From a bacterium (lineage in GTDB: Bacteria; Hinthialibacterota; Hinthialibacteria; Hinthialibacterales; Hinthialibacteraceae), in contig WGLV01000011.1 of NCBI GenBank assembly GCA_016125385.1, positions 62,001 through 126,000 on the forward strand: 64,000 nucleotides of DNA. Direction: 5' to 3'. Positions 44,500 to 46,283 of this stretch are shown here, in pieces. Both the position numbers and the translations under genes were made by a program. The notes beneath the pieces are model-generated. The model did not search any database, was not told where the DNA came from, and was given only the letters and a program-made list of their open reading frames with translations. Numbering within the stretch: the stretch's first letter is position 1; the number at the start of each line of letters is the position of its first letter.

Positions 44500-45273
44500 A
44501 TGAAATTCTACGATCAACTCGCTTTCAGTTACGACGCTTTCATTGATTGGGACGCGCGCATCAAGCGTGAAGACCCTTTCTATCAGCATATTTTCCGCGA
44601 ACGCCTCGCTACGTCGATTCTCGACGCGGGCTGCGGCTCAGGCGGACACGCGCTTCACTGGGCCGGCATGGGCTATAACGTGGTGGGCGTCGACAGTTCG
44701 CCCGAAATGATCCGTAAAGCGCGCGAGGGCGCCGAGCGTGAAGAACTCGACGCGGAATTCGACTGCCTTCAGTTAACCGATTTCGCCTCGCGGCTTCAGA
44801 CGCGCTTCGACGCGGTGGTTTGCGTGGGCAACACGTTGTCGCACATTCTTAATGAAGAAAACATGCTGCGCTTTTTTCGTGAATCGGCCGCCAGCCTGAA
44901 AGACACCGGAGCCGCCATATTTCACTGCCACAACTTCCAGCGCATTCTTGACGTGAAAAAGCGCGATTTTCCGGTGCGGACGCGTCAGCTCGACGGGAAG
45001 GAATACGTCTTCTGCCGTTTTTACGATTTCGGCCCCCGGTATCTCGAATTCAACATGGTGGTCGCCGCGCGCGATCTTGAAAGCGGCGAATGGGCTTCGC
45101 GCAGCATGCAGATGCTGCATTATCCGTGGGTGAAGGATGAACTGCTGGCGCTGTTGAAGCAGGCGGGCTTTACCCAGGTGATGTGTTACGGCGGATTCGA
45201 TTTCAGCGAGTTCGAGCTCGACAAAAGCAACGATCTGATCATGGTGTGCGAGTTCGGCGAGACCGACGAATAA
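44500..45273 (+). CDS. Class I SAM-dependent methyltransferase
   Basis: 257 residues. Motif I is LDAGCGSGGHALHWAGMGYNVVGVDSSPEMI, followed by motif II-like FDAVVCVGNTLSHI. The N-terminus FYDQLAFSYDAFIDWDARI resembles small-molecule methyltransferases. The target is unknown. The stop lies inside the antisense tail of the HepT-like ORF. CCAGGA precedes the ATG. Confidence 0.87.
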   Translation: MKFYDQLAFSYDAFIDWDARIKREDPFYQHIFRERLATSILDAGCGSGGHALHWAGMGYNVVGVDSSPEMIRKAREGAEREELDAEFDCLQLTDFASRLQTRFDAVVCVGNTLSHILNEENMLRFFRESAASLKDTGAAIFHCHNFQRILDVKKRDFPVRTRQLDGKEYVFCRFYDFGPRYLEFNMVVAARDLESGEWASRSMQMLHYPWVKDELLALLKQAGFTQVMCYGGFDFSEFELDKSNDLIMVCEFGETDE

Positions 45274-45976
45274 GGGGACCAGTCCTGTAGTGACACTTGC
45301 TGAAATATTTCGTTTCCAAGTTGAAATTTTCGACAGGGAAAGCGCTTGAATTTCCCCGATTTTTTTCTTGACATTTCTTTTCCGGCTCTGCTACAGTTTG
45401 ATCAGCGCGGAAAGGAGGTGGTCCACTTGATGCAAGACGATAAACCCGGTTGTAGACGTTGTAGCGCAGGTGGCTGCGGAGGTGTGGGGAGCTGATTTTG
45501 ACGCGGGTCTGACGAGCAGGCCCCATGCGTCCGATACACCAAACGCGACGTTTTTTCGGACGCGCCGGCTTTCCAGACTCTCCAATCCAAACAGCTGACC
45601 GAGACGCGGGTGGTTGATCGCTCAACCACCCGCGTTTTTTGTTTTGCTCCAGAATACGGGAGATTTCTTCGAAAATGGGAGGGATATTTTCCGTTACGGT
45701 TTTCCAGACGATTGAAAGATTAATGTCAAAATAACCGTGGATCAGGCGGTTCCGCATACGAACCATCTGTTTCCAGGGAATCATGGAGTATTGAGTTTGA
45801 ATTTCCGGAGAAATCTTTGCTGCGGCTTTACCGATAATTTCCACCAGCTTGATCGCGGTGAACATCAGAAAACGATTGGTTTCCAAGTCTTCCCGGCGTC
45901 GATCTCGCGTAATTTCAATCAATTCATCCGCGGCCCGCTGGATGTGCTGCAAACGAATCCAGTCACTCTTCTTCAT
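45239..45976 (-). CDS. HepT-like (DUF86) toxin-family protein with abnormal C-terminal run-on
   Basis: Residues 1 to about 107 are a HepT/DUF86 domain: DWIRLQHIQRAADELIEITRD, AIKLVEIIGKAAAKIS and RMRNRLIHGYFDI, holding the R-x4-H-x-Y motif of HepT RNase toxins. Family proteins normally end there. This ORF continues for about 138 more residues of low-complexity, Arg/Ser/Pro-rich sequence that is antisense to the orphan unit and crosses into the methyltransferase end. The native stop therefore appears lost. ATG 45976 overlaps the MntA-like gene by 14 nt, the usual module arrangement. Confidence 0.65.
   Translation of the reverse strand: MKKSDWIRLQHIQRAADELIEITRDRRREDLETNRFLMFTAIKLVEIIGKAAAKISPEIQTQYSMIPWKQMVRMRNRLIHGYFDINLSIVWKTVTENIPPIFEEISRILEQNKKRGWLSDQPPASRSAVWIGESGKPARPKKRRVWCIGRMGPARQTRVKISSPHLRSHLRYNVYNRVYRLASSGPPPFRADQTVAEPEKKCQEKNRGNSSAFPVENFNLETKYFSKCHYRTGPLIRRSRRTRTP
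45368..45397 (+). promoter_or_regulatory. Strong sigma-70-type promoter of the orphan small unit
   Basis: A perfect TTGACA (45368-45373), 18-nt spacer, TACAGT (45392-45397). The predicted transcript starts near 45404, directly ahead of the ribosome site at 45411. Confidence 0.7.
45430..45495 (+). CDS. Candidate 21-residue Cys/Gly-rich peptide
   Basis: An ORF from ATG 45430 to TGA 45493-45495. The peptide starts MQDDKPGCRRCSAGGCGG, with a C-x2-C-x4-C spacing reminiscent of metal-binding or redox peptides. The Shine-Dalgarno AGGAGG ends 11 nt upstream; in-frame GTG 45418 and TTG 45427 are alternative starts. A second short ORF (45525-45617) follows but has a poor ribosome site and ends in the terminator stem. 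It is either a true small protein or a leader peptide. Confidence 0.45.
   Translation: MQDDKPGCRRCSAGGCGGVGS
45605..45640 (+). terminator. Strong terminator of the orphan unit
   Basis: A perfect 13-bp stem, CGCGGGTGGTTGA (45605-45617) with TCAACCACCCGCG (45622-45634), TCGC loop, then TTTTTT (45635-45640). Confidence 0.92.
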
Positions 45977-46283
45977 AGAGGACCTTGGCGGTGGAGAGCA
46001 CGTCATCCCTGAAATACCGGCTCAAATCTTCCGCTGTGCGCATATCGACTTCCTGACCGAATCGTCCGCTCAATTCGATTTCCATATCCGCCAGATCAAT
46101 CAGCCCCGGTTCTTTTCCGGGGTGAAACTCCACCAGGAGATCGATGTCGCTATCGGCCCGGTCTTGTCCATGCAAGACCGAGCCGAATAACGATAATTTT
46201 CTGATTTAGTGTTTACGGCGGAAATCTCTCATGTCCTCAGGAGAGATGTTGAGCGTTTTTTCACCGTGAACGATCGCGCTCAT
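45963..46283 (-). pseudogene. MntA-like nucleotidyltransferase antitoxin, interrupted by an in-frame stop
   Basis: From ATG 46283 (AATAAGG upstream) the frame reads MSAIVHGEKTL, then NISPEDMRDFRRKH, a TAA at 46208-46206, and then IRKLSLFGSVLHGQDRADSDIDLLVEF. The GSV-x9-D-x-D nucleotidyltransferase motif is intact, but a nonsense codon separates it from the N-terminal helix that belongs to the same domain. The remaining frame downstream of the stop has only a TTG inside the GS motif as a start. A sequencing error is possible. It pairs with the HepT-like gene. Confidence 0.65.

What the first reader, a model, noticed from the sequence alone, without database searches (positions are those of the whole stretch)
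45368..45640. Orphan short transcription unit: consensus promoter, near-perfect Shine-Dalgarno, Cys-rich micro-ORF, structured RNA and strong terminator
Seen directly: TTGACA-18-TACAGT, AAAGGAGGTGGTCC, a 21-codon ORF with C-x2-C-x4-C spacing, an 8-bp stem, a possible competing stem, and a 13-bp terminator hairpin with six T. Every signal is stronger than those of most genes in the window, and no annotated gene explains it. It may encode a small metal- or redox-related peptide, a leader peptide, or a structured sRNA such as a ribosome-loading decoy. I recognise no Rfam-type family.
Basis: partly seen in the sequence, partly recalled or inferred. Interest (0 to 1): 0.75.

Follow-up and report, generated by a model that had tools for sequence, protein, structure and literature searches.

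The report
Self-translated structured small RNA, multi-phylum
This is a stand-alone small RNA gene whose folded shape and short translated reading frame are kept across several bacterial phyla while the encoded peptide is not; it is a distant, so far unrecognised relative of an actinobacterial RNA known as Ms_IGR-5.

Summary
The signals exist as described, and the unit is real. Copies occur in 12 of 14 genomes of the window's phylum, one per genome, with unrelated neighbours. A covariance model built only from other phyla (Acidobacteria, Eisenbacteria, Leptospiraceae, Binatia) finds the window copy at 35.8 bits (E about 1e-9). The same model finds a Nocardia copy that matches Rfam RF02471, Ms_IGR-5. 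RF02471 itself does not detect the window copy.

Three things are conserved. First, a Shine-Dalgarno stretch complementary to 15 nt of the 16S rRNA 3' end. Second, long-range helices joining the 5' end and the 3' tail to the end of the reading frame, with strong covariation. Third, a short open reading frame in 50 of 50 elements (shuffled: mean 10), ending at a fixed place in the structure. The same conserved RNA segment is read in different frames in different groups, so translation and its stop position seem to matter, not the peptide.

Best reading: a trans-acting structured RNA whose fold is remodelled by its own translation. Target and function are unknown. New variant of a known RNA kind.

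The parts
45368..45397 (+). sigma-70-type promoter, TTGACA-18-TACAGT
   Evidence: a TTGACA/TTGATT-type -35 and an AT-rich -10 lie at the same place in the relatives
45405..45408 (+). P1 5' strand (GCGC), at the presumed 5' end of the RNA
   Evidence: pairs with 45464-45467; covariation G-C/A-U and C-G/A-U in the phylum, 96/128 pairs against a shuffled mean of 55 and maximum of 76 over all groups; four pairs with two-sided changes
45411..45425 (+). extended Shine-Dalgarno AAAGGAGGTGGTCCA, complementary (one G-U) to the 16S 3' end UGGAUCACCUCCUUU
   Evidence: 16S 3' end read in five genomes of the phylum; computed duplex about -29 kcal/mol
45430..45495 (+). short ORF (21 codons, ATG to TGA); an in-frame TTG lies directly upstream at 45427
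   Evidence: the ORF is kept in 12/12 phylum copies and 50/50 copies overall; shuffled mean 10, maximum 21; 11 further loci all keep it
45464..45467 (+). P1 3' strand (GCGC), inside the ORF
45469..45476 (+). P2 5' strand GGTGGCTG (consensus GGTGRCTG), inside the ORF
   Evidence: pairs with CAG..ACC of the tail; 96-98% of cells paired, two-sided changes at three pairs
45478..45493 (+). P3/P4 5' strand (GGAG, then TGGGGAGCT running into the stop codon)
   Evidence: own partner better than the partners of other sequences: 5/20000 permutations in the phylum, 0/20000 in other groups
   Evidence: length and sequence differ between relatives; not conserved
45567..45583 (+). P4/P3 3' strand (GGCTTTCCA..CTCC)
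45584..45600 (+). conserved tail AATCCAAACAGCTGACC: unpaired AAUCCAAA, then the P2 3' strand (CAG..ACC)
   Evidence: consensus AATCCCANCAGNYCACC across phyla; CAATCCCAACAGATCACCG is identical in L010 (window phylum) and L071 (Acidobacteriaceae)
45601..45638 (+). intrinsic terminator
   Evidence: a GC-rich hairpin plus T-run follows the tail in the relatives

Best explanation
A free-standing gene for a small structured RNA of about 235 nt that carries and translates its own micro-ORF. Shown by comparison: a distant homologue of the Ms_IGR-5 RNAs, with a near-maximal SD, an ORF that always ends at one fixed place in the fold, and long-range helices (5' end x ORF, ORF end x 3' tail, stop-codon region x segment before the tail) each with a strand inside the ORF. 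Inferred: 30S subunits load on the SD; the elongating and terminating ribosome melts these helices and frees the conserved 3' tail (AAUCCNAACAG..CACC), which acts in trans by base pairing or protein binding. The RNA would thus report ribosome supply or translation status, and its peptide would be a by-product. My separate estimates: identity about 0.9, translation about 0.85, ribosome-gated trans action about 0.4.
For: Homology: a model from other phyla hits all 11 tested loci of the phylum, window 35.8 bits, E=1.3e-9, and the RF02471 member L085. Copy in 12/14 phylum genomes. P1 and P2 covariation; P4 partner permutation test. ORF kept in 50/50 with the stop at +16 (12 phylum), +5 (37) or +4 (1) after GGTGRCTG, and in 11 new loci. 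Different frames over the same RNA segment. No synteny. SD kept free of the tail: SD x tail is no better than shuffled (mean z +0.37), ORF end x tail is (mean z -1.7). Ms_IGR-5 carries ribosome reads in M. abscessus and M. smegmatis (PMC4974804) and is seen by RNA-seq in S. lividans (PMC8079986).
Against: No transcript or ribosome data exist here for this phylum. No target was sought or found. Thermodynamic folding of naked RNA gives P1 and P2 low probability in many copies, so the conserved fold may need co-transcriptional folding, protein or ribosome. A GGACC/GGUCC helix present in other groups is missing in the window phylum. Two of 14 phylum genomes show no copy (assemblies 84 and 90% complete).
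Confidence: 0.6

Rival explanations
1. The peptide is the product: a conserved microprotein mRNA whose RNA conservation is secondary.
For: ORF strictly kept...EV(A/T)xx* in most groups and ...GGCGG.. within families f1/f2 of the window phylum.
Against: The same RNA segment gives EVAxx in most groups but GGCGG or GGWEV in the window phylum and CGGGCS in Eisenbacteria L073; peptide length 11-30 with a variable N-terminal part; helices covary.
Confidence: 0.15
2. Ribosome sink or decoy: an abundant RNA that holds 30S subunits on a 15-bp SD/anti-SD duplex.
For: SD x 16S about -29 kcal/mol; consensus-like promoter and strong terminator.
Against: Does not by itself explain the fixed stop position, the ORF-tail helix or the conserved unpaired AAUCCCAA; titrating 30S would need abundance comparable to ribosomes, which is unmeasured.
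Confidence: 0.17
3. Self-limiting switch: the tail sequesters the SD after a ribosome opens the ORF end.
For: In several copies naked folding pairs SD and tail; GACCACC in L114/L124 complements GGUGGUC.
Against: Over 30 copies SD x tail is no better than shuffled tails (mean z +0.37), and placing a ribosome at the stop does not lower SD access consistently.
Confidence: 0.08
4. Cis-acting leader or attenuator of a neighbouring gene, including a Cys-sensing leader peptide.
For: Short Cys-containing ORF followed by a terminator.
Against: The downstream gene in the window is on the other strand (HepT); neighbours differ in every genus; Cys codons not conserved.
Confidence: 0.03

Closest known systems
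Ms_IGR-5 (Rfam RF02471, Actinobacteria sRNA)
   Same: Extended SD, short ORF, GAGGUGGCUG near the ORF end, AAUCC..CAG.CACC tail, terminator. Model R1 (other phyla) hits RF02471 members, and RF02471 hits an acidobacterial member of the R1 set.
   Different: The window copy is not detected by RF02471. It has an extra GGAGGUG segment after GGUGGCUG, the stop at +16 instead of +5, another reading frame over the conserved segment, a longer apical domain and no GGACC/GGUCC helix. As read from the printed consensus line, Rfam's structure lacks P1 and P2.
Dual-function sRNAs (e.g. SgrS/SgrT, RNAIII/hld; from memory)
   Same: Structured sRNA that is also translated.
   Different: Here the ORF lies in the core fold and the peptide is not conserved, whereas those peptides have functions of their own.
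Ribosome-sensing leader ORFs / attenuators (from memory)
   Same: Translation of a short ORF remodels the RNA; the peptide itself may matter little.
   Different: No co-oriented downstream gene, own terminator, no synteny: it would have to act in trans.
STAB-SD mRNA stabilisers (from memory)
   Same: Very strong SD near the 5' end.
   Different: No downstream mRNA to stabilise; a complete ORF and a conserved 3' tail.

Membership tests
RF02471 Ms_IGR-5 (as defined by Rfam) | covariance-model score at or above the gathering cut-off of 45 bits | tested here: not met
   no match in the window at gathering or up to E=10; 0 of 14 phylum genomes (its control genomes did not ring either)
Wider Ms_IGR-5-like superfamily (defined here) | significant match to a model built without any window-phylum sequence | tested here: met
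   R1: 35.8 bits, E=1.3e-9; 78 loci with the same SD/GGTGRCTG strings mostly score nothing
Wider Ms_IGR-5-like superfamily (defined here) | P1 helix: 5' end x ORF | tested here: met
   window GCGC x GCGC; 4/4 core pairs in all phylum copies, with compensatory changes
Wider Ms_IGR-5-like superfamily (defined here) | P2 helix: GGTGRCTG x CAG..ACC tail, and unpaired AAUCC.A | tested here: met
   present in the window with one mismatch
Wider Ms_IGR-5-like superfamily (defined here) | short ORF from the SD to a stop at a fixed distance | tested here: met
   stop at +16 in the phylum instead of +5
Wider Ms_IGR-5-like superfamily (defined here) | GGUCC x GGACC helix just upstream of the P1 3' strand (seen in most other groups) | tested here: not met
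   no GACC/GATC before the P1 3' strand in the phylum copies (sequences and alignments)
Dual-function sRNA | functional peptide | tested here: inconclusive
   frame over the conserved segment differs between groups, which speaks against it; no assay
Dual-function sRNA | regulation of targets in trans | not testable with these tools
   needs target capture or deletion transcriptomics

The most novel reading that the evidence does not exclude
A widespread class of RNA present in several phyla, in which a ribosome is loaded by a near-perfect anti-SD match and translates a peptide of no consequence in order to refold the RNA and expose a trans-acting tail: a direct reporter of free ribosomes or of translation termination.
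Probability: 0.35. Interest if true: 0.88.

Novelty: new variant of a known kind. Interest (0 to 1): 0.64.

Why it matters
An RNA catalogued as an actinobacterial sRNA turns out to belong to a much wider set (Acidobacteria, Leptospiraceae, Eisenbacteria, Binatia and the window's candidate phylum), with a universally kept short ORF and a covarying long-range fold that the Rfam consensus does not show. Such deep conservation of translation without conservation of the peptide suggests a link between ribosome activity and gene regulation. It can be tested at once in laboratory strains of Mycobacterium smegmatis or Streptomyces.

Tried and rejected
Metal/redox peptide: Cys positions are not conserved. 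Conserved 8-bp stem at 45527-45563: it lies in a variable loop. Cis leader: no synteny. SD sequestration by the tail: not better than shuffled tails. Known Rfam family for the window copy: none. Literature under the sequence AGGAGGTGGTCC: nothing relevant. A codon-usage look at the window ORF shows several rare codons (AGA, GCA, GGT), but this was not followed across genomes.

Full report
OBSERVATION. The promoter and terminator matches are not remarkable alone; the fold of 45403-45641 is (z -4.7). No larger gene explains the segment: upstream is a methyltransferase gene ending at 45273; downstream, on the other strand, is HepT.

CONSERVATION IN THE PHYLUM. A DNA search found the segment in the same family, order and class. 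With a covariance model, 12 of 14 held genomes of the phylum carry one convincing copy. Several of these genomes are public MAGs labelled Candidatus Omnitrophota, e.g. SURF_12 and Zod_Metabat.949; I believe the group is Hinthialibacterota, from memory and untested. Neighbouring genes differ in every genus, so this is a stand-alone gene.

A WIDER FAMILY. A pattern scan of genome contigs with the two most conserved strings returned, besides phylum members and chance hits, many loci in Acidobacteria, Acidimicrobiia and other Actinobacteria, Eisenbacteria, Binatia and Leptospiraceae with the same anatomy. Rfam scans showed that some of these are RF02471, Ms_IGR-5: Nocardia L085 at 112.6 bits, Acidimicrobiia L110 at 47.8, Acidobacteria L033 at 47.7, against a cut-off of 45. 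The window copy is not detected by RF02471 even at E=10. A model, R1, was built from 13 sequences, none of them from the window's phylum. It finds the window at 35.8 bits (E=1.3e-9) and all ten relatives, and Nocardia L085 at 44.1 bits. Caveat: R1's training loci were collected with strings taken from the window's phylum, so the SD and GGTGRCTG agreement is partly built in. Against this, 78 other loci selected by the same strings mostly do not match R1 (the few strong ones look like further members), and the tail, P1 and ORF were not part of the pattern. The 19-nt tail CAATCCCAACAGATCACCG is identical in L010 (window phylum) and L071 (Acidobacteriaceae). In a sample of 386 genomes R1 hits 32: 11 in the phylum and 21 elsewhere, in about 17 further families; a stricter string search found only two elsewhere.

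STRUCTURE. P1 joins the 5' end of the RNA (window 45405-45408) to the ORF just before A-GGUGRCUG (45464-45467). Over 32 unique pairs of strands, 96 of 128 pairs form, against a shuffled mean of 55 and maximum of 76 in 5000. P2 joins GGUGRCUG to CAG(n)NNACC in the tail. On the 42-sequence alignment the whole structure has 88.9% of cells paired, against 34-52% when slid, and a covariation score of 0.309 against 0.154 shuffled and about 0.05 slid; four P1 pairs and three pairs of P2 have changes on both sides (that alignment is fitted to the model and leans towards it). P3/P4 join the stop-codon region to the segment before the tail. The AAUCCNAA before the P2 3' strand is conserved and has no partner in this model. 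In other groups GGUCC of the SD can also pair with GGACC just before P1; the window phylum lacks this.

ORF. All 50 elements examined have a start codon (ATG, GTG, TTG or CTG) after the SD that stays open to one fixed stop: +16 nt after GGTGRCTG in 12/12 phylum copies, +5 in 37 others, +4 in one Eisenbacteria copy. Shuffling the middle keeps an ORF in 10 on average, 21 at most. Relatedness makes these counts non-independent, but phylum lengths of 18-30 codons show many in-frame length changes. Eleven loci found later by R1, whose model holds no ORF information, all keep it. The peptide is not kept: the conserved RNA reads as ..EVAxx* in most groups and ..GGCGGEES* or ..GGWEVTSG* in the phylum. 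The 16S 3' end in the phylum is GGCTGGATCACCTCCTTTCT, so AAAGGAGGTGGTCCA pairs over 15 nt with one G-U.

MECHANISM. Shown by comparison: conservation of SD strength, of an open frame to a fixed stop, and of helices whose strands lie inside the frame. Inferred: ribosomes melt P1, P2 and P4 when they pass, so fold and translation exclude each other, and the free tail acts in trans. A switch in which the tail hides the SD was tested and not supported. Published data fit translation: Ms_IGR-5 homologs carry ribosome reads in M. abscessus and M. smegmatis (PMC4974804; the authors note that classical ncRNAs can show footprints too). RNA-seq supports the transcript in S. lividans (PMC8079986) and S. 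avermitilis (PMC8780764), and the annotated IGR-5 overlaps an sRNA seen in M. smegmatis (PMC10454040). I found no functional study in the held library.

VERDICT. Real, conserved, and a new variant of a known RNA kind; the family is much wider than catalogued and very probably translated. What it regulates is unknown.

Noticed in passing
window 45951-46283, - strand: MNT-type nucleotidyltransferase partner of the HepT gene has an in-frame stop near its N-terminus (..DFRRKH*IRKLSLFGSVLHG..), so this HepT/MNT pair may have a broken antitoxin or a downstream TTG start.
   Followed up: partly
L087, L098, L128, L110 (Acidimicrobiia): After the stop codon these copies hold GGACCACCT, an exact complement of AGGTGGTCC in the SD, which could be a group-specific SD-sequestering element.
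   Followed up: no
   Followed up: no
L041, L052, L055, L068, L072, L087, L098, L110, L128: Acidimicrobiia copies appear to use CTG as start codon after the SD, in frame to the fixed stop.
   Followed up: partly
L129:3387-3562 (-), Sphingomonadales: A weaker R1 match (24.5 bits) with an extended SD and a GTG ORF (VSHCLTLRTGTMVAAVGIAAD); possibly a distant member in Alphaproteobacteria.
   Followed up: no
L010, L012, L013, downstream of the element: On the other strand downstream there appears to be the end of an rpsU (S21)-like gene; read by eye in this genus only and not checked with a family search.
   Followed up: no
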